A stretch of 10,925 bases of DNA from Treponema sp. (GTDB lineage Bacteria; Spirochaetota; Spirochaetia; Treponematales; Breznakiellaceae): positions 1 through 10,925 of the forward strand of contig JAISPH010000050.1 of NCBI GenBank assembly GCA_031275035.1. The letters run 5' to 3'. Below the pieces are notes generated by a model. That model did not search any database. It was not told the origin of the DNA and saw only the letters and a list, made by a program, of their open reading frames with translations. Both the position numbers and the translations under genes were made by a program. Each line of letters opens with the position of its first letter. The stretch's first letter is position 1. Of the stretch, positions 1 through 10,925 are shown piece by piece.

Positions 1-405
1 CTAATCCACCAACCCCTGGAAGTAAGACGAATGCGTGTTACATCCGCCTCTCCGGTGTATATACGCAGTTCGCATATATCGCCCCCACCCCGGATAAACG
101 CAATTCGTCTAATCAGCCCTTTCCCCGCGTATATATCACCCCAGACCCGGATATATACGTAATACGTTTAATCAGCCCAGACCCGGTATATATACGCAAT
201 TCGTTTAATCGGCCCCGTACCCGCATATATACGCAATACATATAATCGGTTCTTTCTTGGTATATATGCGCAATTCGTATAATCAGCCCAGACCCGAAAA
301 TAAAGCGAATGCGTGTTACATCCACCCGCCTGCATATAGACGTATTGCGTATATATCACCCCCGTCCGCGTATATACGCAGTTCGTATATATCGCCCCAG
401 ACCCG
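1..405 (-). repeat. Left palindromic tandem array, 36-37 bp period
   Basis: About eleven consecutive units are visible, with core ends near positions 44, 79, 114, 136, 173, 210, 247, 284, 322, 357 and 393. The end of another unit lies at 1-6, so the array continues beyond the left edge. Each core is a near-palindrome with arms such as TATATACG and CGTATATA around a CAATT or CAGTT centre, followed by a GC-rich linker of 11-15 bases (for example GCCCCAGACCCG). Most intervals are 35-38 bp. The unit ending at 136 has lost about 15 bp. Units ending at 44 and 322 are a distinct variant (AATGCGTGTTACATCC). The strand given is the one on which the units match the right-hand array. There is no gene here: reading frames through the repeats give low-complexity Tyr/Ile/Arg-rich translations. 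The array lies downstream of the minus-strand operon, so it may act in mRNA 3'-end formation or bind a protein; that role is inference. Confidence 0.9.
293..329 (+). repeat. 37-bp inverted repeat, left copy
   Basis: This stretch begins CCCGAAAATAAAGCG and ends ACATCCACCCGC. Its reverse complement occurs without mismatch at 9006-9042. It covers the variant unit of the left array. The two copies lie about 8.7 kb apart, one on each side of the envelope gene module. Confidence 0.93.
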
Positions 406-454
406 CCGCCCCAACTCCTCCTCTTCACACACGCTCCCCGCCCCGGTAAAAGCC

Positions 455-476
455 ATCCGCCGCCAGGAAGGCGGAT
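455..476 (-). terminator. Possible terminator hairpin after the leftward operon
   Basis: A 7-bp perfect stem (ATCCGCC with GGCGGAT) encloses an 8-base loop. On the minus strand it is followed by GGCTTTTACC, a weak T-run. It lies about 85 bases downstream of the deacetylase-like stop codon and before the repeat array. The short T-run makes it a mediocre intrinsic terminator. Nothing else is recognisable between 406 and 560 apart from pyrimidine-rich sequence. Confidence 0.35.
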
Positions 477-560
477 TGTGTCCGCAGGGCAACGGCAGGG
501 ATGCCGCCAGCAGGGACGCCGCCGGAGACCAGGCCCCGGCGCTGAACATTACGGAAACAG

Positions 561-2909
561 TTACCGCGCGTGTTCCATCACCGTCGAAACCGGCACCACT
601 TCATAACCGGAACGGACCAGGGCGTCCAGCAGCACGTCGAGGCGGTTGAAGAGGTAATCCTTCCGGCCTCCGGGAAGAAGCCCCAGCCTGACGGGGATGA
701 TAGAACCGGGCCGCTTTGTTTCCATAATAAAATCGATCATATCCGAAGCCGGGTACTGGGTAATGCCGATCCGCCTGGATTCGTCCAGGCTGATCCAGTC
801 CTGGGGGTCCGTGTCCCGGCCTACGGTCCTGTACCCCGCGGCGGCGGCGGCGGCGATTATCTCCGGGGAGGCGGCGTAATAGGGGGGGTGCCAGAGGAGG
901 CTCAACTCGCTGCCGGAAGCGCGGAAGAATTCATCCTCGTTCCGGGCCAGGCCCCGGGAGATAAAGTCCGGATCTATCTGATACCGGGCGTCGGATACAT
1001 CAATGGGGGCAAAGAACATGGAGGCGGTCTCGTGGCCCGCCCCGGCAATGTCCCGGACGGCGGCGGGATAACGGCGGATAAATTCGCCGTTCAGGAAAAA
1101 GGTGGCCCTGATGCCGAAACGGTTCAACGTATCCAGTACGACAGGAAGCCCCGTGGCGTCGTCGTAGAGATCAAAGCAGAGAGCCACTTCCCGCAGGCCG
1201 TCCCGGAGGCCGTGGGTAAAGAGGCCGGGGGTCCGGTCCTTCTCTTCGGCCGCGGCGGGCCGGAGGTACTCTATGGCGGGAAACAGGGAAACGGTTCCCG
1301 CAGAACCGAGGCTCCGTACCATGGGAAGATTTTCGTAGGGCCCGGAACTCTGTTTTTCCAGATAGATTCGGAAGCGGGATGAAACGGTGGAACTTTCCCG
1401 GACGGGGGGATCCGTGATTCCGGTCCAGGGGGCGGTTCCATCGGTAACAAACCATGAGCCGCCGCTCCGGGCAAAGATGCGGCTTCCCCCCTCTTCAAAG
1501 CCAAACTGAGCCGCCGAGGAAAGACAGATAAGGCTCTGCTGTATCCTAAGTTCCGGGGACTCCGCCGGTTCCGCGGCGGCGCCCTGCCCCAGGGTAAAGC
1601 GGGAAGCCGCCGCCCCGGAAAGGCGGACCCGCCGTATTCCCTCTACATCACCGGCGATAAGCTCATTGTCGTCAATCCAGATGCATGAAAGGGCGGGGCT
1701 GGTTCCCAGGGTTTCCAGAAGTTTCCAGCTGCTATAATCGTAGAGGACTATGCCCCCTTCCCCCCAGAAGAGGGCCCTGGTCCCGCCGGGAGAAAGGGCG
1801 CCGCGGGATCCCGCCGGAGATTCCAGGGCGGTAAAGAGCAGTTCCCTTCCATTACTGTTGATATGGAGGCGGTAGGCAAAAAGTTCCGTTTCGTTCTTCC
1901 TGGGTATGGAGGCTATTACCGTTACCATGCCGCCCGGAGCCCACAGCACCGAAAGGGCGGCGCTGGCCCGGGGGATCATTACATAGGGCAGAGAAGCCTG
2001 GGAAAGGGCTTCATAATCGTCCATTCCCAGGGGATAGTAGAAGAGGTTCCGGCCCCCCTTGGCAAGCAGTATGGACTGGGATTCGGGGCCTATCCAAAAC
2101 GAATCGAAGCCTGGGTCAAAGTCCCAGGGGATCTTCCCCGCCACGGAACCTATTTCGAGAAACCCCGCATAGAGGGTCCGGGCAAAAAGTTCCGCGCTGC
2201 GGACCCGGAAAACCGTGGAGCTCCGGAGATAAAAAAAGTCTCCCCCCCTGCCCCAGGCTATGGAATTGACGGCCCCCTCGCCTATGAGCCGGTACTGTTC
2301 GTCCATTGAGGCAAGAAGCGGGGCGCCTATGGTATAGTAGTAGAGTTTTCCCCCCTTGGCGTAGACAAAGAGCCGGGAATTGGGGCTCCAGCAGGCGGGG
2401 AAAAACCGGTCCGGCCTTTCCACCTGGACGGCGACGGGAGTCTTTTCCCCGGAAACCGTATCCAGCAGGATAAGATTTCCGTAGGCCGCGGTTACGGGCT
2501 CCACATAGAGAAGCCATTTGCCGTCGGCGGAGGCGGCCATCTCTTCCACCCGGCCGCCCAGCACGGGGGAGCCCCCCGAAAAGGAGGGAAATCCGGGAAT
2601 ATGCCGGGGAAGGCCCCCGGAAAGGGGAATGCGGATAACCCCAAAGGCGTTCCGCACCTGAAGGGTTCCGCCGTCTTCGACCAGATCCATCTTTTCGGGA
2701 AAGGCGGTAAGCTGCCTCATGGACAGGTCCGTCAGCCGGGAAAGGAGCAGAACCCCCTGGGAATGGGCGCCGTTATTGTCCGAATCGGCCCGGAGAAGCA
2801 GCCGGTCATCGCCGGATACATCGGGGGCGCTGAAATTAACCTTTGCCGCGCTCCGGGCCGCCGGAAGCAGCAACGCGGGGATGATTAACCATAACGGAAA
2901 TTTAGCCAT
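561..2909 (-). CDS. Exported beta-propeller protein with a degenerate NodB/CE4 polysaccharide deacetylase domain
   Basis: The 782-aa product begins with a Sec-type signal (Lys3, hydrophobic 5-16, then AARSAA); there is no lipobox Cys. Residues about 30-500 carry recurring WD40/TolB-like blade motifs (WSPNSRLFVYAKGG, WAPGG, LSPGGTRALFWGEGG), so a beta-propeller is likely. Residues about 573-778 match a NodB homology domain: ATFFLNGEFI (602-611), HPPYY (674-678) in place of RPPY, DTDPQDW (699-705) and RPGSII (733-738). The metal-site motifs are altered. Motif 1 reads CFDLYDD (578-584) rather than TFDDG, the usual H-x3-H after GHE is absent (GHETASMFF, 625-633), and the late catalytic His is missing (VRLG). 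The family removes acetyl groups from peptidoglycan or other glycans. This member may have lost that activity or use different chemistry. It is the last gene of a leftward operon headed by an M23 peptidase. No good ribosome binding site precedes the ATG; the start was chosen because it gives an intact signal peptide. Confidence 0.85.
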   Translation of the reverse strand: MAKFPLWLIIPALLLPAARSAAKVNFSAPDVSGDDRLLLRADSDNNGAHSQGVLLLSRLTDLSMRQLTAFPEKMDLVEDGGTLQVRNAFGVIRIPLSGGLPRHIPGFPSFSGGSPVLGGRVEEMAASADGKWLLYVEPVTAAYGNLILLDTVSGEKTPVAVQVERPDRFFPACWSPNSRLFVYAKGGKLYYYTIGAPLLASMDEQYRLIGEGAVNSIAWGRGGDFFYLRSSTVFRVRSAELFARTLYAGFLEIGSVAGKIPWDFDPGFDSFWIGPESQSILLAKGGRNLFYYPLGMDDYEALSQASLPYVMIPRASAALSVLWAPGGMVTVIASIPRKNETELFAYRLHINSNGRELLFTALESPAGSRGALSPGGTRALFWGEGGIVLYDYSSWKLLETLGTSPALSCIWIDDNELIAGDVEGIRRVRLSGAAASRFTLGQGAAAEPAESPELRIQQSLICLSSAAQFGFEEGGSRIFARSGGSWFVTDGTAPWTGITDPPVRESSTVSSRFRIYLEKQSSGPYENLPMVRSLGSAGTVSLFPAIEYLRPAAAEEKDRTPGLFTHGLRDGLREVALCFDLYDDATGLPVVLDTLNRFGIRATFFLNGEFIRRYPAAVRDIAGAGHETASMFFAPIDVSDARYQIDPDFISRGLARNEDEFFRASGSELSLLWHPPYYAASPEIIAAAAAAGYRTVGRDTDPQDWISLDESRRIGITQYPASDMIDFIMETKRPGSIIPVRLGLLPGGRKDYLFNRLDVLLDALVRSGYEVVPVSTVMEHAR

Positions 2910-2956
2910 ATCTATAGTATCGGCTCATTCCGGAAAAAGCAAAATACAGAACAGGC

Positions 2957-2980
2957 CCGGTTCCGTCAAACCGGAACCGG
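2957..2980 (-). terminator. Intergenic hairpin upstream of the deacetylase-like gene
   Basis: A perfect 9-bp stem (CCGGTTCCG with CGGAACCGG) with a 6-base loop lies in the 81-base gap between the 59-aa gene and the deacetylase-like gene. On the minus strand it is followed by GCCTGTTCTGTATTTTGC, which is only moderately T-rich. It could be an attenuator, a partial terminator or an mRNA-stability element that lowers expression of the last gene. Confidence 0.4.
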
Positions 2981-2990
2981 AGGCTCTGGA

Positions 2991-3170
2991 TCAAGGTTTT
3001 TTAAGGATGATCTCTTCCAGTTCCTGTTCCAGAATATCCAAATTCCGCTCCATCTCCTGAATCCGGCGTATAGAATACCGGATCTTGGTATGCCGGAGAC
3101 GATCGCAGGTTTTATCTAAGACCGCTTCAAAGGAGGGGGGATTTGAAACCGCCGCTTTTTTTTCATTCAT
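2991..3170 (-). CDS. 59-aa charged helical protein, function unknown
   Basis: This small gene begins MNEKKAAVSN and ends LEEIILKKP. Residues about 14-57 are strongly charged and read as one continuous helix with heptad-like spacing (IRRIQEMERNLDILEQELEEI), so a coiled coil or a small partner-binding protein is plausible. It has no signal peptide and looks cytoplasmic. GGGGGA sits about 7 bases before the ATG. The gene starts 22 bases after the stop of the 41-aa gene, in the same direction, which supports cotranscription. I do not recognise a family. Being in an envelope operon, it could be an adaptor or regulator; that is inference. Confidence 0.68.
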   Translation of the reverse strand: MNEKKAAVSNPPSFEAVLDKTCDRLRHTKIRYSIRRIQEMERNLDILEQELEEIILKKP

Positions 3171-3192
3171 ACCATATCCCCCGAAGATAACG

Positions 3193-3318
3193 CTAATTAT
3201 CTCCGTTCAGGATGATAACTGTTTCGGAAACTCCCGGAGAATTCCATGAGTTATCATAGGCCCGGATAAAGGTCGCCACCGCGATAAAGGCCATTAAAAT
3301 AAAAACCAAATTACGCAT
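3193..3318 (-). CDS. 41-aa secreted or membrane-anchored small peptide, function unknown
   Basis: The product begins MRNLVFILMAFIAVATFIRA, a positively charged start followed by a hydrophobic segment (residues 4-18) that would serve as a signal peptide or single membrane span. A short polar tail follows (YDNSWNSPGV ... NGDN). GGAG lies 4 bases before the ATG. The gene begins 32 bases after the stop of the M23 peptidase gene and is followed 22 bases later by the 59-aa gene, so it sits inside the operon. It could be a small membrane regulator of the neighbouring peptidase, but nothing in the sequence shows that directly. Confidence 0.65.
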   Translation of the reverse strand: MRNLVFILMAFIAVATFIRAYDNSWNSPGVSETVIILNGDN

Positions 3319-3350
3319 GATTCTCCATCCAGGTCATTTTAAGTGTACTG

Positions 3351-4490
3351 TTATGAATTAAGAAATTCAAGGGGATTCAGGGCCCTTCCGTTTTTATAGA
3401 CCGCAAAGTGCAGATGCGGCCCGGTGCTGTAACCGGTGCTGCCCACCTCTCCTATTTTGGCCCCCTGATTAACATAGGCTCCCTGCCGCACCGATGTAAC
3501 GCTCATGTGACCGTACAAGGTCTGATACCCGTTGCTGTGGGTAAGGATGATATACTTCCCATAAACCGAGTTGACCCCCACCATGGAAACCCTGCCGTCC
3601 ATGGCGGCCTTGATGGGCGTACCCGTACTGGCCGCCAGATCCACCGCCGCATGGTAACGCCGTTCCCCCGTAAAGGGATCCCGGCGCCAGCCGAAGGGAG
3701 AAGTAAGCCGTCCCCGGATGGGGTAGATGAAGAATTCTCCCAGGGCCATTTTAAGATCTTCCGCCCGCATCCTCGCTCCGGGTAAAAAGAGCACCGTCCC
3801 GGGATTTATGGCGTCGCTTTGTATGTCGTTGGCATCCAGGATGGCCTCCAGGGGAATGCCCTGGGCCGAGGATATTTTCAACAGGGTATCGCCCCGCTTA
3901 ACCGTATAGGGGATGCCGTCCATGTTGGGGATGCGGATAACATCGCCCGCGCTGAGCCGCTTGGCGTTGGCTATGCTGTTGGAGGCGATAATGGCGTCCA
4001 TGGAAAGGGCATGATTGGCGGCGATCCTGGACACCGAATCGCCCCGCCTGACCGTATAGGATTTCCACTCAAAGGTTTCCATCAGATCCAGGGGGATAGT
4101 TCCCTCCTGCTCAGCCGCCCCCGGACTGAGTCCCGCATAGGAGGCCAGGCTTGCCCGGAAGACCATGTCCTCTCCGGGGTAAAGGCCTGCATCGGAACGC
4201 CAGTTCAGGACAAGCAGGACCAGGAGCAGTCCGGTAAGGACGGTCAGGAAAGCGGCGGAAACGGCGAAGGTCCTTGGGGAATAACGGAGTTTCCTCGGTT
4301 TGATCCAGGGCAGTTTTATCAAGGGCAGCTTAAACCGGGGCAGATGCAGTTTCCGGCGGCGGCGTATATGGGCGGGCTTTTGTTTTATTTTGGCAATTGC
4401 GGCAGATCCGGCCCGGTAATCAGCCGCCTTGGAGAGCAGAGAGGGAAAACGGCGGTGTTTGACGCGCTGGGCCGCAATAATATCGTTCAT
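3351..4490 (-). CDS. Membrane-anchored LysM-M23 peptidoglycan endopeptidase
   Basis: The 379-aa product has a very basic N-terminal cytoplasmic region (1-73, rich in RRRRK and KLP/KPR), one transmembrane segment (about 74-96), two LysM peptidoglycan-binding repeats (YTVRRGDSVSRIA from about 145 and YTVKRGDTLLKIS from about 195, each ending in R/LxP), and a C-terminal M23 domain (about 261-375). The Zn-binding pattern is present: HAAVD (280-284), YGH (326-328) and HLHF (359-362). Such enzymes cut peptide cross-links in the periplasm, or activate amidases when metal ligands are lost; here the ligands are kept. The frame stays open 42 codons further upstream, but that extension would overlap the divergent signal peptidase gene and cross a TATAAT element, so I start at the ATG at 4490. 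No clear ribosome binding site is seen. It is the first gene of the leftward operon. Confidence 0.92.
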   Translation of the reverse strand: MNDIIAAQRVKHRRFPSLLSKAADYRAGSAAIAKIKQKPAHIRRRRKLHLPRFKLPLIKLPWIKPRKLRYSPRTFAVSAAFLTVLTGLLLVLLVLNWRSDAGLYPGEDMVFRASLASYAGLSPGAAEQEGTIPLDLMETFEWKSYTVRRGDSVSRIAANHALSMDAIIASNSIANAKRLSAGDVIRIPNMDGIPYTVKRGDTLLKISSAQGIPLEAILDANDIQSDAINPGTVLFLPGARMRAEDLKMALGEFFIYPIRGRLTSPFGWRRDPFTGERRYHAAVDLAASTGTPIKAAMDGRVSMVGVNSVYGKYIILTHSNGYQTLYGHMSVTSVRQGAYVNQGAKIGEVGSTGYSTGPHLHFAVYKNGRALNPLEFLNS

Positions 4491-4503
4491 AATACTTGGT
4501 TTA

Positions 4504-4532
4504 TCGACATAATCAAACCTAATGATTATACT
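4504..4532 (+). promoter_or_regulatory. Promoter of the signal peptidase-PBP-DUF115 operon
   Basis: TCGACA (4504-4509) and TATACT (4527-4532) are separated by 17 bases; each matches the sigma-70 consensus at 5 of 6 positions. The predicted transcript start, near 4539, lies only about three bases before the ATG at 4542, so translation of the first gene may be leaderless or nearly so. The -10 overlaps the -10 of the divergent promoter. Confidence 0.55.
4525..4530 (-). promoter_or_regulatory. -10 element of the M23 peptidase operon
   Basis: A perfect TATAAT lies on the minus strand. The hexamer 17 bases upstream, TTCAGT (4548-4553), is a poor -35. Initiation near 4518 would give a leader of about 28 bases before the start at 4490. 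It shares bases with the plus-strand TATACT, so one AT-rich core may serve both directions. Confidence 0.5.
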
Positions 4533-4541
4533 TGCCGGTGT

Positions 4542-5045
4542 ATGAAGACTGAACCGGAAGCTCCTTCGGGCCCGCCTGGGCCGGAATCCGGGACAACCGG
4601 GGCCCTTGGAGGACACGCCGGGGAAACGGGCGGCAGGGGCTGGCCCGCCCGGAGCATACTGGCCGCATTCGCCGTGGCCCTTCTGATGAAGATCTTTCTC
4701 TTCGACTTTATGATTGCCGAGGGCCGTTCCATGACGCCGGCGATTATGCCGGGAACCATACTGCTGGTGTTTAAAAGCGCATACGGCATACGGCTTCCCC
4801 TGTCCAAAAAATACCTGTTCCTCTGGGCCCTTCCCAGGGAGGGGGACGTGGTGGTTTTCTATACCCCCCAGGGAGAGATCGCAGTAAAGCGCTGCGCGGG
4901 TTTAACAAAGGAGGGGGCCTTTGTCGCCCTGGGAGATAACAGCCGGGATTCCCTGGATTCCCGCTCCTATGGCCCGGTGCCGGCGGATTGTATCGTAGGA
5001 AAGGTACTCAGCTTGAGGGGGTCCCGCCCTGTGAAAGGATATTAG
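4542..5045 (+). CDS. lepB: Type I signal peptidase
   Basis: The 167-aa product removes signal peptides from exported proteins at the outer face of the cytoplasmic membrane. Residues 1-36 are a Pro/Gly-rich cytoplasmic tail, and 37-57 form the membrane anchor. The catalytic Ser is Ser63 in GRSMTP and the general base is Lys116 in AVKRCAG. The family box GDNSRDSLDSRSYGPV (131-146) and IVGKV (151-155) follow. It is short for the family, near the minimal Gram-positive type. The open frame extends far upstream, but that part runs opposite to the M23 gene and is rejected. The ATG at 4542 is the only good start before the membrane segment and sits directly downstream of a promoter, with no clear ribosome binding site. 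Its TAG stop abuts the ATG of the next gene. Confidence 0.93.
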   Translation: MKTEPEAPSGPPGPESGTTGALGGHAGETGGRGWPARSILAAFAVALLMKIFLFDFMIAEGRSMTPAIMPGTILLVFKSAYGIRLPLSKKYLFLWALPREGDVVVFYTPQGEIAVKRCAGLTKEGAFVALGDNSRDSLDSRSYGPVPADCIVGKVLSLRGSRPVKGY

Positions 5046-6902
5046 ATGAGCTTTCCCCAGGAAAGAAGGCGTTTCCTCGTTTTTGTTTCCCTCTTTGCCC
5101 TGGCCGCCCTGGCGGTCTTTGTCCGCTATACCACGCTGATGCTGAACCCCTCCGGAACGGGGACCCTGAATCCTCCGGGTGGAGGCTTTGGGGAACGGGG
5201 TCCCATCCTTGACCGTAACGGCCGGATCCTGGCGCTCCAGACCAGGCTGGGAAATATCAGCGTCTGGAGGCCGGAAATTGCCGATGCCGGCGCCCTGGCC
5301 CAGGAACTTTCCCCCATTCTGGAAATGCCCGCCGGTGAAATACGGGACCGGATAAGCCTTTCCCCCAGCGATTTTGTCTACATTAAAAAACAGGTAGATC
5401 AATCGGTGATCCGGGCCATAGAAAACGCCAAGGCCCAGCGGCAGCTCCGGGGGGTCAGCATTGAACCCGTGGTGGGACGGATCTATCCTGAAAAACAGCT
5501 TGCCGGTCAGATTGTAGGTTTTGTAGGGGATGTCAACCGGGGGCTGGCAGGGATTGAGTATGCCTTTGAGCAGGAGCTGGCTCCGGCCGGAAACGGTCAG
5601 GGCAATCAGGTGCTTCTCACCATCGATATCGGCGTCCAGTATATCCTGGAAGATATAGCCCGGAAAACCATGGCGGAAAATCAGGCCGAGGGGGTGATGT
5701 TCCTGGCCATGGACCCCCGTTCCGGGGATATTCTGGGTTCCGCCTCCCTCCCCGGTTTTGACCCCAACGACATCCGGTCCTCCAGCGAGATTTCCCGGAT
5801 GGACCGGCCCGCAATCTGGGCCTATGAACCCGGCTCGGTATTCAAGGTCTTTTCCCTGGCGGCCCTGCTGGACGCCGGGGCTATCGCCGAAGACACCATC
5901 TTTTTTTGCAACGGCCGCTATGAACGGATCACCGGCCGGGGCGAGCGGATCGTCATCAACTGCCTGGGCGCCCACGGCCGGGTCAGCGCCCGGGAGATTA
6001 TCATCTATTCCTGTAACGCCGGGGCCGCCTATGCGGCGGACCGGCTGGAGACGGGAACCTTCTACAATCTGCTCAGGGATTTCGGCTTCGGCGCCCGGAC
6101 CGGGGCGGGAAACCCCGGGGAAACGGCGGGATTTTTCCGCCCCACGGCGGAGTGGTCCGAACGGTCCAAGCCCACCATTGCCATGGGCCAGGAAATTGCG
6201 GTCTCCGCGGTACAAATGCTCCAGGCCGCCACCGCCATCGCCAACGACGGGGTCCTGGTCCATCCCCGGGTGGTTTCCCGGATCCTCTCACCGGAGGGAA
6301 AGATACTGCGAAACTATGAAGCGGCCCCGCCGCGGCGTATCATCGGGCAGGAGACCGCCCGGGCCATGAGGCGCTATATGGCGGACGTTACCTCCAGTAT
6401 CGGCACGGGCTGGAGGGCCAATGTGGAGGATCTTTCCCTGGCGGTAAAGACCGGAACCGCCGAGATCATCGATCCCGCCACAGGGATCTACTCGGATACG
6501 GACTTCATCGCCAGCTGTATAGCCCTGCTTCCGGCGGAGTCTCCCTCGCTGGTACTCTACCTGGTGATCATCAAACCCAGGGGCGATTACCTTGGGGGCC
6601 GCATCGCCGCCCCTCCCATCAGAGAAGCCGCAGAGGCCCTTATCGATTATTTGGGAATACCCCGGGGCAGAAACCCCCAGATAAGCCATCCCGGTTCCGT
6701 CAGCCTTCCCCCGGAGGAGACCCTGGTCATCGGCGACAGTATCCCGGATTTTACCGGCTATGCCAAACGGCAGCTCCTTCCCCTGCTGCTCCGGGATGAT
6801 CTTCAGCTTGAAATTAACGGCGAAGGCTGGGTCAAACGGCAGAGTCCCGCTCCGGGGACTCCTTTCAGCCCGGGAATGACGATCATCCTGGAACTGGAAT
6901 GA
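5046..6902 (+). CDS. ftsI: Class B penicillin-binding protein (peptidoglycan transpeptidase, FtsI/SpoVD-like) with a C-terminal PASTA domain
   Basis: The 618-aa product has a short cytoplasmic start, one membrane anchor (about 10-27), a PBP dimerisation domain with the class B signature RGPILDRNG (52-59 region), and a transpeptidase domain with all three active-site motifs: SVFK (264-267), SCN (322-324) and KTG (468-470). A single PASTA-type segment (about 565-618) ends the protein. It would cross-link septal peptidoglycan in the periplasm, probably with an FtsW-type glycosyltransferase that is not in this window. Assignment to FtsI rather than the elongation PBP2 rests on length and the PASTA domain. 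AAAGGA lies about 7 bases before the ATG, which directly follows the signal peptidase stop. Its TGA overlaps the next ATG (ATGA), indicating translational coupling. Confidence 0.93.
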   Translation: MSFPQERRRFLVFVSLFALAALAVFVRYTTLMLNPSGTGTLNPPGGGFGERGPILDRNGRILALQTRLGNISVWRPEIADAGALAQELSPILEMPAGEIRDRISLSPSDFVYIKKQVDQSVIRAIENAKAQRQLRGVSIEPVVGRIYPEKQLAGQIVGFVGDVNRGLAGIEYAFEQELAPAGNGQGNQVLLTIDIGVQYILEDIARKTMAENQAEGVMFLAMDPRSGDILGSASLPGFDPNDIRSSSEISRMDRPAIWAYEPGSVFKVFSLAALLDAGAIAEDTIFFCNGRYERITGRGERIVINCLGAHGRVSAREIIIYSCNAGAAYAADRLETGTFYNLLRDFGFGARTGAGNPGETAGFFRPTAEWSERSKPTIAMGQEIAVSAVQMLQAATAIANDGVLVHPRVVSRILSPEGKILRNYEAAPPRRIIGQETARAMRRYMADVTSSIGTGWRANVEDLSLAVKTGTAEIIDPATGIYSDTDFIASCIALLPAESPSLVLYLVIIKPRGDYLGGRIAAPPIREAAEALIDYLGIPRGRNPQISHPGSVSLPPEETLVIGDSIPDFTGYAKRQLLPLLLRDDLQLEINGEGWVKRQSPAPGTPFSPGMTIILELE

Positions 6903-8905
6903 AAGCCTCCGCCTGCTGGGAAAAGAATTTACGAATCATCCGGGAACAGTATCCCGGTCTGGCGGAACAGCTTGCCGCTTCCCCCGAATCCGGCGAACTA
7001 AAGCTGGAAAGGGCCGCCTCCGGAGACCCCACCTTGATTATCCGGGGTCTCCACATTCATTCCCCCCGGGACCCGGTCCGGGAAGGCCGCCGTCTGGCGG
7101 CGTCCCTCCCGGAGCCTTCCCCGGAGCCGCCGCCCCTGATTGTACTGGGTTTCGGCCTGGGCTATGCCGCGGAGGCCGCCGCGGAAAAGACGCCGGACCG
7201 GCCTTTCATTATTGTGGAACGGCGGCCCGGAGTGCTGCGGCGGGCCCTTGAGGTTCGGGATCTGGAAGCCTTTCTCGCCGGGCATAAACTGATCTTTATT
7301 CTGGGAAAGGAGCCGGACCCTGAAGCGGAAAACAATGCGGACCCGGCGGGAGGGGCCATACCGGACCGGTCCGGCGCCGAAGATTCCGCCGGGGCCGCCG
7401 TAACCGGCGCGCTCGGGCTTTTTGAATATTCCGCGCCGCCGGATCTGCTGAAGAACCGGGTCCTGATCGGACTGGATGAAGACTGGTACGCCGGGGTAGA
7501 ACGGCATATAAAGGTATGGAGTTCCCGGGATGATGTAAACATGGCTACCCTGCGGCGTTTCGGCAGACGTTGGGTCCGCAACCTGGCGGCCAACCTGGAG
7601 GCCATCCGGGATCTGCCGGGTATCACCGGCCTGGCGGGTGTGCTGGAGGGCCGCTGTCCGGCGCTGCTGGCCGCTGCGGGACCTTCCCTGGACGAGACAG
7701 GCCCCTTTCTTCCAGCACTGCGGGAACGGTGTCTTATCGTAGCGGTGGACACCTCCCTCCGCTTCCTCCTCAGGGCGGGGGTGGAACCGGACTTTACGGT
7801 GGCGGTGGACCCTCAGTTCTGGAACGCCCGGCATTTGGACCGGGTCCCGGCCCCCGGCTGCTGCCTTATCGCCGAATCCGCGGTCTATCCTCCGGTACTC
7901 CGGGGATACCACCGGGGCCGCCGGACCGGACCGGCCTTCAAACGGGCCCTGCTCTGTTCATCCCTCTTTCCCCTGGGTCGCTTTATCGAGGATCGCCTGG
8001 ACCCCAAGGGAATCCTCGGCGCCGGGGGATCGGTGGCCACCACCGCCTGGGACTTTGCCCGGCTGCTGGGCCCCGCTTCCATCTGGATTGCCGCGCTGGA
8101 TCTGGCCTTTCCGGAGGGTAAAACGCACTTTTCCGGGGCCTTCTTTGAAAACCGGAGTCTTGCCGAAGCGGATCGTTTTCGTCCCGCCGAGACCCGCGCC
8201 GCCGGAGCCCTGCGAGGGGGTCTTCCCTTCCGGGCCCCTGCCGCCGGGGGAGGAACGGTTCTGACGGACCGGCGGCTCTCCCTTTACTCGGCCTGGTTTG
8301 AAAACCGCTTCCGGGAATACCCGGAAACCCCCGTTTTCAGCCTTTCCGTCCGGGGCCTGGCTGTGGCGGGGCTTAAAACCGCTTCCGTAGAGGAACTGCT
8401 GGCCCTTCCACCCTGCCGGGACAGGATAGACCGCCTTTTGGAATCGGCCTTTGTCCGGATTGAAGCGGCTTTTTACAGTCCCGGGGAGACCGAAAGACGG
8501 GAGGCCCGGTATCAGGCGGCCCTGGGGGAACTGCTTGACGGGCTGAATCTGATTAGGGATCTGGCGAAGGAGGCCGCCGGGGCCGCGGAACGGGGCCTTG
8601 GGCAGATTCCGCCGGGAAAGGACGGAACCGGGGACCCCGTCCTGGGGAAGCTTCTGAAGCGGCTGGATCAGGTTAACAAGACCATAGCGGAGAGTGAAGT
8701 AAAGGATGCGGCAGGCTTCCTCTTCCCCCCGCTTCAGGAACTGGAGGGGAAGCTTAAGACCCCCCCCTCGGAACCCCTCAGGCGGTATCTGGAGTTATCC
8801 GCCGCGCTCTACCGGTCCCTGGGAGAGGCGGCGGAGTACAACCTGAACGCGCTCCGGTCCGCCCCCGGCATGGACGCCGCCGGCAGGCGTGGAAGCAGGG
8901 GGTGA
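6899..8905 (+). CDS. DUF115 / MptE-like protein (Maf-type motility accessory factor family)
   Basis: The 668-aa product has a Rossmann-like N-terminal part (IVLGFGLGYAAEAAA, 81-95), then an acidic low-complexity insert (about 138-170), and the DUF115 core (about 205-420). Core motifs are AAAGPSLDE (258-266), VDTSLRFLLRAGVEPDF (283-299), VAVD (301-304), GAGGSVATTAWDFA (374-387) and the segment DLAFPEGKTHFSGA (401-414). The C-terminal third (about 505-655) is predicted helical. Relatives include archaeal 6-hydroxymethylpterin diphosphokinase MptE and bacterial Maf proteins that transfer nonulosonic acids to flagellin. In a spirochaete a role in modifying periplasmic flagellin is plausible but not shown here. 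It overlaps the PBP gene by four bases, so it is cotranscribed. Its stop codon lies at the first base of the right repeat array. Confidence 0.85.
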   Translation: MKASACWEKNLRIIREQYPGLAEQLAASPESGELKLERAASGDPTLIIRGLHIHSPRDPVREGRRLAASLPEPSPEPPPLIVLGFGLGYAAEAAAEKTPDRPFIIVERRPGVLRRALEVRDLEAFLAGHKLIFILGKEPDPEAENNADPAGGAIPDRSGAEDSAGAAVTGALGLFEYSAPPDLLKNRVLIGLDEDWYAGVERHIKVWSSRDDVNMATLRRFGRRWVRNLAANLEAIRDLPGITGLAGVLEGRCPALLAAAGPSLDETGPFLPALRERCLIVAVDTSLRFLLRAGVEPDFTVAVDPQFWNARHLDRVPAPGCCLIAESAVYPPVLRGYHRGRRTGPAFKRALLCSSLFPLGRFIEDRLDPKGILGAGGSVATTAWDFARLLGPASIWIAALDLAFPEGKTHFSGAFFENRSLAEADRFRPAETRAAGALRGGLPFRAPAAGGGTVLTDRRLSLYSAWFENRFREYPETPVFSLSVRGLAVAGLKTASVEELLALPPCRDRIDRLLESAFVRIEAAFYSPGETERREARYQAALGELLDGLNLIRDLAKEAAGAAERGLGQIPPGKDGTGDPVLGKLLKRLDQVNKTIAESEVKDAAGFLFPPLQELEGKLKTPPSEPLRRYLELSAALYRSLGEAAEYNLNALRSAPGMDAAGRRGSRG

Positions 8906-9131
8906 TTAGACAAACTGCGTTTATAGGCGCTGAGGGGCGATATATACGCAATACGCCTATACGCGGGGTGGGCGGCATATATACGAACTGCGTATATATG
9001 CCGGAGCGGGTGGATGTAACACGCATTCGCTTTATTTTCGGGGAAGAGTGGGGAGTAGAGGGTCTGGGGCGATATAGACGAACTGCGTATATATACCAAG
9101 AAAGGGCCGGTTAAACGCAATGCGTTTATAA
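8904..9131 (+). repeat. Right palindromic array, same family as the left array in opposite orientation
   Basis: Six units are recognisable at about 8904-8925, 8938-8961, 8977-9000, 9012-9038, 9070-9097 and 9111-9131. The last has a perfect palindrome, TAAACGC and GCGTTTA around AAT. Units match the left array only as reverse complements. The order of variants is also the same: ordinary unit, AATGCGTGTTACATC variant, GGGTCTGGGG linker, ordinary unit, CCAAGAAAG linker, ordinary unit. The linker at 9039-9069 is about 31 bases, consistent with partial loss of a unit. A decayed unit may follow near 9153-9168. The first unit begins within the DUF115 stop codon. Confidence 0.88.
9006..9042 (-). repeat. 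37-bp inverted repeat, right copy
   Basis: This is the exact reverse complement of 293-329, covering the variant unit of the right array. Confidence 0.93.
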
Positions 9132-9187
9132 CAGGCAGTTCAAGTGCGGGGCAGACAAAATGCGCAAACCCCCTGGCACGGACGTCC

Positions 9188-9216
9188 CGGAAAACGACCC
9201 GAAGGGGCGTATGACG
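9188..9216 (+). repeat. 29-bp direct repeat, copy 1
   Basis: The unit begins CGGAAAACGACCC and ends GGGCGTATGACG. It is identical to 9252-9280, with 35 bases between the copies. Its centre folds as ACG-A-CCC, GAA loop, GGG-G-CGT. In this copy an outer stem (CCCGG with CCGGG) can also form around it. Confidence 0.9.
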
Positions 9217-9251
9217 CCGGGCGCGGCAGCGCCTATTTAATCCATACCTTT

Positions 9252-9280
9252 CGGAAAACGACCCGAAGGGGCGTATGACG
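9252..9280 (+). repeat. 29-bp direct repeat, copy 2
   Basis: This is the exact second copy of the 9188-9216 unit. A diverged relative that keeps the beginning CGGAA, the hairpin arms (ACGCC with GGCGT) and the CGTATG end lies at 9413-9440, inside the higA remnant. The bases from 9281 to 9343 hold nothing I recognise. Confidence 0.9.
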
Positions 9281-9343
9281 GGGCTGTGTCATTCGTGGTT
9301 AATCCCTGGGCTCGTATCCGGGTTCTTTTGCGGACGCGCCGCC

Positions 9344-9660
9344 TTAAGAGGTTTCACGCCTGCAATTTGGCGGACGGTGAGTCAGGGTATGTATTTCTGT
9401 AAGTTCTTTTTCCGGAAGACGCCTCGTTCGGCGTATGTTGCATTCGTTTTGTATGCCAACCCAGAATTCAACGCTGTTTCCAAACTATTTGGGAAAACGC
9501 AACGCGGTGTCTATGGTTATTTTTCGCTTTCCCTTTACAATTTCGGAAATCCGGGTGGCGGAGATTTTTTGTTTCCTTGGCAAACCAGTATACCGTAATC
9601 TTCAAGGGTTTAAGAAAATCCTCCTCAAGTATCTCTCCGGGCTTGATAGGTTTTTTTCAT
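9344..9660 (-). pseudogene. higA: Decayed HigA-type antitoxin (XRE family helix-turn-helix)
   Basis: Read in pieces on the minus strand, the region gives PIKPGEILEEDFLKPLKIT, then a shifted KISATRISEIVKGKRKIT followed by IDTALRF, then a stop in place of the Tyr of the usual SKYFGNS context, then FGNSVEFWVGIQNE and a C-terminal tail to about 9344. This is the typical layout of the HigA/VapI antitoxin family. The ATG at 9658-9660 has GGAGG four bases upstream and starts 12 bases after the higB stop. Three lesions are visible: one extra A in the A-run right after the start codon, one extra A in the run near 9565-9570, and an in-frame TAG. An intact HigA would bind and silence HigB and repress the operon; this copy cannot encode a full protein. 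Confidence 0.8.
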
Positions 9661-9672
9661 ACTGCCTCCACG

Positions 9673-9869
9673 TTAATGATAGTCAACAATTTCAACGTTA
9701 CCGGCATTTTTCTATCATTCCAAACAAAACAAATCCTCCACTGGCTGTTTATCCTGATGGAGTATTGGCCTTTTCTGTTTCCGCTCAATTGCTCAAGACG
9801 ATTCCCCGGTGGAATTTTCAAATCTTCCCATATCAGCGATGTTTCTTTGTCCTTGAATGACTGTATCAT
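9673..9869 (-). pseudogene. higB: Decayed HigB/RelE-type mRNA-cleaving toxin with an internal deletion
   Basis: The start MIQSFKDKETSLIWE is joined directly to DLKIPPGNRLEQLSGNRKG, then QYSIRINSQWRICFVWND. The family has about 92 residues with roughly 25-30 residues between these two blocks, so an in-frame internal deletion has removed helices of the RelE fold. Near the C-terminus an A-run length change (9706-9710) shifts the frame; in the other frame NAGNVEIVDYH and TAA follow, which is the normal family ending, just before the higA ribosome binding site. Without the shift the frame runs on to 9657. An intact protein would cut mRNA on the ribosome. The pair is oriented toward the right repeat array. 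Confidence 0.83.
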
Positions 9870-9889
9870 CCTTCTTATTGAATAACTAG

Positions 9890-9898
9890 ATTATACCA
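9890..9898 (-). promoter_or_regulatory. Extended -10 promoter of the higBA remnant
   Basis: TGGTATAAT on the minus strand is an extended -10 element with a perfect TATAAT. It is placed to start transcription about 14 bases before the higB ATG. No convincing -35 is present. The promoter appears intact although the genes are not. Confidence 0.5.
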
Positions 9899-9947
9899 TC
9901 ACGTATACCCCGCTCCTATATAATTATATTAACCTAAGCTAATTATT

Positions 9948-10586
9948 ATGAACAGTAAACCGCTTTTGTCATTCAAGAAAATCTATTTTGAATGTAACGT
10001 GAAACATTTAATTGAACAGGTTATGCGGGAAATGGCCGTTTATAAGTTAGAGGCTTTTGTAAGCCTACTTTTTCGGAGGCTTGAAATTGCGGCTGCTAAA
10101 TCTAACCAGAGATTATTAACTTTGGATATGATTACAGGTATTCTTAATTACACCAGAGACAATAGTCATTGGACTTGTTCGATAACCCGGTTGGTTATCT
10201 CACAAGTCTCCCCAAAAACGTGGATTTCATTAAGAAATCAACGTTTTTTGTTGTTTTTAAGCGGTTGTTGTTCAAAAACTGAAGTTTCTGAACAACTCTA
10301 TTCTGTAAATTCGCCCTTTGCCATTAAAGATAACGGCAACGCACTTTTGGTACCCGTCGAAGACTATTTGGCCTGTTTGCAAAACGCATTTCCCAATCAG
10401 TTTGCCGGACTTGTTAATGAAAATGAACTCAAACCTTGGGCTAAAAATATGGTAAAACAAGTAAAAGAAAAACTAAAATCATCTGAACAAGGAAGTTATA
10501 ACAGAACCAAAATAGCAACAGGAACCGGCCTAATTATTAATGAATTTGCAGCGTTATATCCTGCATTAAGGACACCTAAAAATTAA
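9948..10586 (+). CDS. Unrecognised 212-codon ORF, AT-rich, possibly interrupted by a structured element
   Basis: The frame begins MNSKPLLSFKKIYFE and ends EFAALYPALRTPKN. I recognise no family. Residues 1-70 look like a helical, charged protein segment, and residues about 105-212 also look protein-like (a Lys/Glu-rich helix near 165-185). The middle, about residues 76-101, is encoded by two back-to-back hairpins and reads poorly as protein, so the frame may be two remnants bridged by an inserted repeat. TATAAT at 9919-9924 could be a -10, but no good -35 or ribosome binding site is seen; a second ATG at 10023 is possible. Base composition differs sharply from the GC-rich genes to the left, suggesting acquired DNA. 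Its TAA overlaps the stop of the convergent small ORF. Confidence 0.5.
   Translation: MNSKPLLSFKKIYFECNVKHLIEQVMREMAVYKLEAFVSLLFRRLEIAAAKSNQRLLTLDMITGILNYTRDNSHWTCSITRLVISQVSPKTWISLRNQRFLLFLSGCCSKTEVSEQLYSVNSPFAIKDNGNALLVPVEDYLACLQNAFPNQFAGLVNENELKPWAKNMVKQVKEKLKSSEQGSYNRTKIATGTGLIINEFAALYPALRTPKN
10173..10248 (+). repeat. Twin-hairpin element inside the 212-codon ORF
   Basis: Hairpin 1 (10173-10207) pairs ACTTGT with ACAAGT and GATAACC with GGTTATC, with a symmetric TC/TC internal loop and a CGGTT loop. Hairpin 2 (10214-10248) pairs AAAAACGT-x-GATTTC with GAAATC-x-ACGTTTTT around ATTAA, with one mismatch, and is followed by a T-rich run. Two strong hairpins in tandem are unusual in coding sequence. 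They fit a small inserted palindromic element, or a terminator-like RNA structure on either strand. Confidence 0.65.
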
Positions 10587-10774
10587 TCTTTGGGAATTTT
10601 CAGGCATTCATAAGTGTCAGATGTTTCGCCGGTCACTTCAAGCAGTAACTCTTTTGGATCACAAGGCGCCCCCTTGGTATTTTTTTCATCTAGAATTTTA
10701 AATTCATTTATCGTGTAACCATCTTCTGAAAGATGACCAAAAAAATGAAACTTTATTTGATAATAAGACCTCAA
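10583..10774 (-). CDS. Small hypothetical ORF (63 codons, TTG start)
   Basis: The frame reads MRSYYQIKFHFFGHLSEDGY ... CLKIPKD. It would need a TTG start: an in-frame TAA lies three codons before it, and there is no evident ribosome binding site. The composition (mixed charged and aromatic residues, no low complexity) is protein-like, but no family is recognised. It is convergent with the 212-codon ORF and the stop codons overlap. It may be a real small gene or the 3' remnant of a larger one. Confidence 0.35.
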   Translation of the reverse strand: MRSYYQIKFHFFGHLSEDGYTINEFKILDEKNTKGAPCDPKELLLEVTGETSDTYECLKIPKD

Positions 10775-10801
10775 TAATTTTTTTTAATAAAAATTAAAAA
10801 T

Positions 10802-10820
10802 CCACCGCCTTTGGCGGTGG
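10802..10820 (-). terminator. Strong hairpin, terminator-like on the minus strand
   Basis: A perfect 8-bp stem (CCACCGCC with GGCGGTGG) has a TTT loop. On the minus strand it is followed by ATTTTTAATTTTTATT, so it can act as an intrinsic terminator for a gene entering from the right. The GC-rich stem stands out in AT-rich surroundings. Subterminal hairpins of this kind also occur at the ends of IS200/IS605-type elements. No transposase is visible in the remaining bases to 10925. Confidence 0.5.
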
Positions 10821-10925
10821 TCATGTACTGATGGTTATACCGTAAGAAAAGCAAGAAGGTAGGGCAGGGGATAGTAGCAATTATTTTGAAAAAAAGACGG
10901 ATGGAAACAACGCAAAATTTGTTGC

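What the first reader, a model, noticed from the sequence alone, without database searches (positions are those of the whole stretch)
1..9131. Two oppositely oriented palindrome arrays bracket the 8.5-kb envelope module
The arrays at 1-405 and 8904-9131 belong to the same 36-37 bp palindromic repeat family and lie on either side of the seven-gene cell-wall and export block. They match each other only as inverted copies. Their variant units and linkers occur in the same order (ordinary, ATGCGTGTTACATC variant, GGGTCTGGGG linker, ordinary, CCAAGAAAG linker). That indicates descent from one composite array rather than independent expansion. The pair could be a dispersed genome-wide element, or could mark a segment able to invert or be mobilised.
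Basis: partly seen in the sequence, partly recalled or inferred. Interest (0 to 1): 0.7.

Follow-up and report, generated by a model that had tools for sequence, protein, structure and literature searches.

The report
Scattered DNA-hairpin arrays in Treponema
Two stretches of repeated DNA hairpins flank a cell-wall gene cluster in a Treponema-like spirochaete; they look like scattered copies of a small repeat family rather than a device that flips or moves the cluster, and related copies in other spirochaetes sit inside enzyme genes without breaking the reading frame.

Summary
The two arrays are real and mutually inverted. They hold two hairpin types of about 28 nt: A (13 units) and B (3 units). 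Bracketing is not supported: the closest relative (L001, in genome G001) has the gene block at 87% identity and in the same order, with no array beside it, and six more distant relatives keep the order. G001 instead carries the family at four other arrays plus a solo unit. A related family with both hairpin types occurs in G104 and G105, there often alternating B-A. In those two genomes units also lie in open frame inside conserved genes (Sua5, an RluA-type synthase, NrdG2); G082 has a likely copy in purL. At one site in NrdG2, relatives have 6, 5, 3 or 0 units. A broad B-type model hits 4 of 195 family genomes (E<=0.01), patchily on a Sua5 tree. Best reading: REP/BIME-like and RPE-like palindromic elements that grow in tandem and disperse rarely, lying on both sides of this block by chance. 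How they disperse is unknown: a Y1 transposase was found in 2 of 4 genomes tested, with no unit in the loci held around it. Palindromic repeats of this general kind are known; this two-hairpin, untagged family seems to be a new variant.

The parts
1..405 (-). Left array: 8 A and 2 B units seen, reading as GG..CC / CATT-loop orientation on the - strand; cut at the contig end
8900..9136 (+). Right array: 5 A and 1 B units, opposite orientation to the left array
18..45 (-). B unit (12-4-12 hairpin, CATT loop)
296..323 (-). B unit, part of the 37-nt exact inverted copy
9012..9039 (+). B unit, part of the 37-nt exact inverted copy
52..83 (-). A unit (11-5-12 hairpin)
87..118 (-). A unit
146..177 (-). 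A unit
183..214 (-). A unit
220..251 (-). A unit
257..288 (-). A unit
329..360 (-). A unit
365..396 (-). A unit
8900..8931 (+). A unit; the stop codon of the MptE-like (DUF115-type) gene, 8903-8905, lies in it
8936..8967 (+). A unit
8973..9004 (+). A unit, a 12-bp perfect stem with a 5-nt loop
9068..9099 (+). A unit
9105..9136 (+). A unit, the most diverged
561..8905 (.). Gene block between the arrays: polysaccharide deacetylase (-), M23 peptidase with LysM (-), signal peptidase S26 (+), FtsI-type transpeptidase with PASTA (+), MptE-like/Maf-type protein (+), and small ORFs; not part of the repeat

Best explanation
The arrays are tandem clusters of a small palindromic repeat family with two hairpin types, A and B, held by a few Treponemataceae. 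Shown: several places per genome; mostly head-to-tail arrays; two hairpin architectures common to two lineages; a gene's stop codon lying in the first unit (window, and G001 C95); and, in related genomes, units in open frame inside conserved genes, with unit number differing between relatives at one site. Inferred: arrays grow and shrink by slippage or unequal recombination between units; new sites are seeded by a rare copying step of unknown enzyme, perhaps dependent on the hairpins; copies persist where they do little harm (between genes, at gene ends, in protein loops); copies that are transcribed form RNA hairpins. Their place on both sides of the cell-wall block is taken to be coincidence.
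For: G001: arrays on C17, C97, C95 and C144 and a solo unit on C92. Block without arrays in L001, same order in seven relatives. Related family: a G105 28-mer at <=3 mismatches hits 10 distinct places in G104 and 4 in G105, and none in the other 193 of 195 genomes; the reversed pattern hits none. Arrays BABABAB, BABABA and ABABAA (4 units found with reversed motifs as control in the same loci). Architecture 12-4-12 and 11-5-12 in both lineages; covariation score and percentage paired reached by 0 of 500 shuffles. In-frame copies: Sua5 of G104 and G105, absent as peptide from the 28 other Sua5 rows, one of them truncated there; RluA-type synthase of G104 and G105, between S4 and catalytic domains; NrdG2 of G105, G104 and P0003. 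Of 117 of 120 listed NrdG2-like proteins with both motifs, 116 have 35-57 residues between them and P0003 has 125; the G105 query has 133 and G104 79; P0004, 81% identical over 52% of the query, has no unit. In the gene copies 11 of 13 unit spacings are multiples of 3, elsewhere 21 of 58 (my assignment; one-sided Fisher P 0.0018).
Against: The link between the window/G001 family and the G104/G105 family rests on short sequences: B units differ at 5 of 28 positions between typical members, A units by more. Covariation is not clean: the number of pairs with changes on both sides is no higher than in shuffles (258 of 500 and 490 of 500 as high), a +2 slide of the A structure scores almost as well (0.197 against 0.206), and the A units without the G104/G105 copies were unclear (40 of 500 shuffles as high). 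Shuffles do not remove relatedness. No copy inside a gene was seen in the window or in G001 except at stop codons. Copies are few for a REP family. For RluA no homologue without the unit was aligned. No enzyme of dispersal was found.
Confidence: 0.82

Rival explanations
1. The arrays are functional parts of the flanking genes: hairpin arrays at gene 3' ends that stop transcription or protect mRNA, or sites for a DNA-binding protein, kept by selection.
For: Both window arrays follow the 3' end of the outermost module gene, in the same orientation relative to that gene, which by itself explains why they are inverted. In G001, C97 follows a 3' end, C95 overlaps one and C144 lies between two.
Against: G001 C17 and C92 lie between apparently divergent genes, C95 has the opposite orientation relative to its gene, the array is absent beside the same genes in L001, and few of the 195 family genomes carry the family.
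Confidence: 0.12
2. REP elements of the classical kind, moved by a Y1 (RAYT-type) transposase acting in trans.
For: Hairpin size, loop size, clusters and gene-end or in-gene sites fit the REPs of PMC3733652 (sections 6 and 15 read). G001 and G104 each have one Y1_Tnp gene.
Against: No GTAG or CGTC at the unit ends. No unit near either Y1_Tnp gene within the loci held, 2423 and 2287 bases. G105 and G145 gave no Y1_Tnp match (drafts), while 8 of 9 genomes have one and 8 of those 9 lack the arrays.
Confidence: 0.12
3. The arrays bound a segment that inverts or moves by recombination between the inverted repeats.
For: Opposite orientation and an exact 37-nt inverted pair, which could in principle recombine.
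Against: Block intact and arrayless in L001; same order in seven relatives; no recombinase among the Pfam matches of the six module and flank proteins scanned.
Confidence: 0.03

Closest known systems
REP sequences and BIMEs (GTAG- and CGTC-tagged repeats, PMC3733652; sections 6 and 15 and passages seen)
   Same: 20-40 bp hairpins with 4-5 nt loops, several types, clusters, mostly between genes and near gene ends, some supplying stop codons or lying inside genes (including pseudouridine synthases); CGTC repeats are reported there in five phyla including Spirochaetes
   Different: No terminal GTAG or CGTC, mostly head-to-tail arrays of two hairpin types, few sites per genome, no Y1 transposase flanked by the repeat found. 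The word Treponema does not occur in the main text of that paper
Rickettsia palindromic elements (RPE; as described in PMC3733652, otherwise recalled)
   Same: Palindromes in open frame inside conserved genes of varied function
   Different: Unit only about 28 bp, gene copies can be tandem arrays of up to six units, spirochaete host; no sequence comparison with RPE was made
37-bp long tandemly repeated repetitive sequences of cyanobacteria (recalled, no call)
   Same: Tandem arrays with a period near 37 bp
   Different: Not compared here

Membership tests
REP (GTAG/CGTC superfamilies) | 20-40 bp imperfect palindrome with a 4-5 nt loop | tested here: met
   28-nt units, loops of 4 or 5; window B units fold weakly alone
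REP (GTAG/CGTC superfamilies) | GTAG or CGTC tag at one end | tested here: not met
   Unit ends read from alignments A5 and A6; CGTC occurs only inside A units, next to the loop
REP (GTAG/CGTC superfamilies) | Y1 transposase gene flanked by the repeat | tested here: not met
   2 of 4 genomes have a Y1_Tnp match; no unit at <=9 mismatches in either locus
BIME | Mosaic cluster of distinct palindrome types with recurring linkers | tested here: met
   G104 arrays on C34 and C11; window and G001 arrays less regular
BIME | Neighbouring units in alternating orientation (recalled definition) | tested here: not met
   Most arrays on one strand; mixed strand calls in L132, L179, and one unit each of the window and L032, where the near-palindrome makes strand doubtful
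Rickettsia palindromic elements | In-frame presence inside conserved protein genes | tested here: met
   For the related G104/G105 family only; not seen in window or G001
Rickettsia palindromic elements | Sequence relationship to a described RPE | not tested
   No RPE sequence was fetched
CRISPR array | Unique spacers of regular length between repeats | tested here: not met
   Linkers are short, C-rich and recur
Invertible or mobile segment | Found inverted or absent in relatives | tested here: not met
   one close relative only

The most novel reading that the evidence does not exclude
A two-part palindromic element of spirochaetes: hairpins of two fixed architectures (12-4-12 and 11-5-12) that travel together, can alternate in arrays, and expand in frame inside conserved enzymes, so that a protein loop just behind the CxxxCxxC motif of the radical-SAM activator NrdG2 has grown by 6, 5 or 3 units in relatives and by none in another.
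Probability: 0.5. Interest if true: 0.65.

Novelty: new variant of a known kind. Interest (0 to 1): 0.45.

Why it matters
If right, spirochaetes have their own lineage-specific palindromic elements that act both as intergenic arrays and as in-frame protein insertions, with unit number varying between close relatives. That gives a natural system for asking how bacterial palindromes multiply without an obvious transposase and how conserved enzymes tolerate inserts near an active-site motif. For the window itself it removes a false lead: the cell-wall block need not be a mobile or invertible unit.

Tried and rejected
Invertible or mobile block: rejected. Spread by phage or plasmid: no support; the exact 17-mer of the B core is in no viral contig and the left array matches no plasmid or phage record at E<=1e-5. 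Known RNA family: no Rfam match at gathering threshold in the window. Coding arrays in the window: unit spacings are not multiples of 3 (2 of 9 and 0 of 4), so the small ORFs over the arrays are probably spurious. Gene-end orientation rule: holds for both window arrays but not for all G001 arrays. Y1 transposase as mover: not supported. One origin along the Sua5 tree: not seen; at least 3 changes for 4 carriers among 31 rows, no more clustered than chance (74 of 500 shuffles as low).

Weak hits set aside after looking at the DNA: for model R2, G067 (its locus reads as a coding region without an array); for model R1, G033, G084, G094, G157 and G009, while G145 looks like a diverged array by eye but gave no unit at <=9 mismatches. 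R3 was built from the window, G001, G104 and G105 copies, which match it by construction; beyond them it found only G082. Family searches over 40 genomes use stricter filters, so counts of carriers are lower bounds, and array-bearing contigs often end at the array.

Literature: search listings. Apart from PMC3733652 no paper was opened. None of the titles listed describes such a family in Treponema; one search returned only unrelated papers and tells nothing. PMC3733652 itself reports CGTC repeats in Spirochaetes without my having seen which species.

Full report
The window. It is probably a whole contig of 10925 bases, and its closest relatives in the genome collection are Treponema MAGs. That these come from termite guts is my inference from isolate codes, not a tool result. 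Between the arrays lie a polysaccharide deacetylase and an M23 peptidase with LysM (both -), then a signal peptidase S26, an FtsI-type transpeptidase with PASTA, and an MptE-like/Maf-type protein (all +).

The arrays. The left one (1-405, cut at the contig end) has 8 A and 2 B units, the right one (8900-9136) 5 A and 1 B. They match each other in opposite orientation only (148 against 37). A 130-bp stretch around the B unit is shared closely, with an exact 37-nt copy, so copying or conversion between the two is likely. Their common unit order is not significant by itself (797 of 5040 permutations as good), and the left array is closer in score to G001 C17 (172) than to the right array (148).

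Bracketing. L001 holds the block at 87% identity from 558 to 8869. Searches of its genome put the repeat elsewhere: C17 (13 units), C97 (4), C95 (5), C144 (3) and a solo on C92, plus weak singles on C51, C122, C177, C2 and C114. Models R1 and R2 find no array in G002-G009 (R1 at E<=0.1 gives one weak hit, in G009 at 0.0986; R2 at E<=1 none); the genomes of L005 and L009 were not searched in this step. Order and orientation of the module are the same in seven relatives. At the right edge, L001's gene ends with a different C-terminus and an inverted repeat that could be a terminator, read by eye, where the window has 11 more codons and the array; the window's stop codon lies in the first unit. 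So the arrays arose or were lost at these gene ends since the split from G001, and nothing ties them to movement of the block.

Wider family. Over 195 genomes of the family, R2 hits 4 and R1 hits 6 at E<=0.01. Reading the DNA shows real arrays in G104 and G105 and a diverged one in G145; the others look like chance. One G105 28-mer at <=3 mismatches hits 10 distinct places in G104, 4 in G105 and none in the other 193; the reversed pattern hits none. Two G104 arrays run BABABAB and BABABA with type-specific linkers, one in G105 ABABAA. Reversed motifs gave 4 units in the same loci as a control. B types of the two lineages share 23 of 28 positions (by eye), and both lineages show 12-4-12 and 11-5-12 hairpins. 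Covariation: score and percentage paired reached by 0 of 500 shuffles in both alignments, but numbers of doubly changed pairs and of pair types are not above shuffles, and a +2 slide of the A structure is nearly as good; with the window and G001 A units alone the result is unclear. A broad B model (R3) hits G001, G104, G105 and G082 of 195. On a Sua5 tree of 31 rows these four need at least 3 changes, so the distribution is patchy.

Inside genes. In Sua5, G105 has two units and G104 one in a variable stretch of the C-terminal domain; 28 other rows lack the peptide (27 read through, one truncated), though several have other Gly-rich inserts there. In an RluA-type synthase of both genomes units lie between the S4 and catalytic domains; no unit-free homologue was aligned. 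In NrdG2 six units (G105) and three (G104) lie directly behind the CxxxCxxC motif. Of the 120 best proteins listed out of 5112 with E<=1e-20, 117 carry both flanking motifs: 116 have 35-57 residues between them and one, P0003, has 125 with five unit peptides; P0004 is close and has none. In G082 a B hit (E 5.6e-4) lies in an open purL frame. Unit spacings inside genes are multiples of 3 in 11 of 13 cases, outside in 21 of 58 (my assignment; P 0.0018); the open frame itself forces part of this.

What it is. The nearest known kinds are REPs and BIMEs and the Rickettsia palindromic elements. PMC3733652 (sections 6 and 15 and passages) describes REPs near gene ends, supplying stop codons and lying in genes, among them pseudouridine synthases, and notes CGTC repeats in Spirochaetes. 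The present family works like these but lacks their terminal tags and a Y1 transposase flanked by the repeat. I file it as a new variant of a known kind. Tandem growth and rare dispersal are inferred; the enzyme is unknown.

Noticed in passing
window 10168-10302: A dispersed element of about 135 bp with three predicted hairpins lies inside ORF 9948-10586. The search with window 9132-10925, most of whose listed matches fall on it, gave 42 matches in G001, 42 in G005, 41 in G007, 48 in G009, 33 in G003 (lower bounds; 37 candidates scored per genome). MITE-like by look.
   Followed up: partly
L096 about 665-797 (G005 C308): A copy of the same 135-bp element appears to interrupt another gene, on a contig that also carries a Y1 transposase at 27-386.
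   Followed up: no
window 9188-9216 and 9252-9280: Exact 29-nt direct repeat next to the right array; window 9211-9281 matches places in G001 and G004.
   Followed up: no
window 9657-9869 (-): HigB-like toxin-antitoxin gene (PF05015, E 2.2e-12); the ORF at 9468-9605 (-) gave no Pfam match.
   Followed up: no
window 9948-10586 (+): ORF of 212 aa without Pfam match; in about 5.8 billion proteins the only hit is the window's own record.
   Followed up: partly
L001 3505-3557 and 7373-7426: A different inverted pair of GC-rich palindromic repeats lies inside and beside the same gene block in the close relative.
   Followed up: no
L001 12167-12439: Nine overlapping copies at a 21-nt period downstream of the block, in the close relative.
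   Followed up: no
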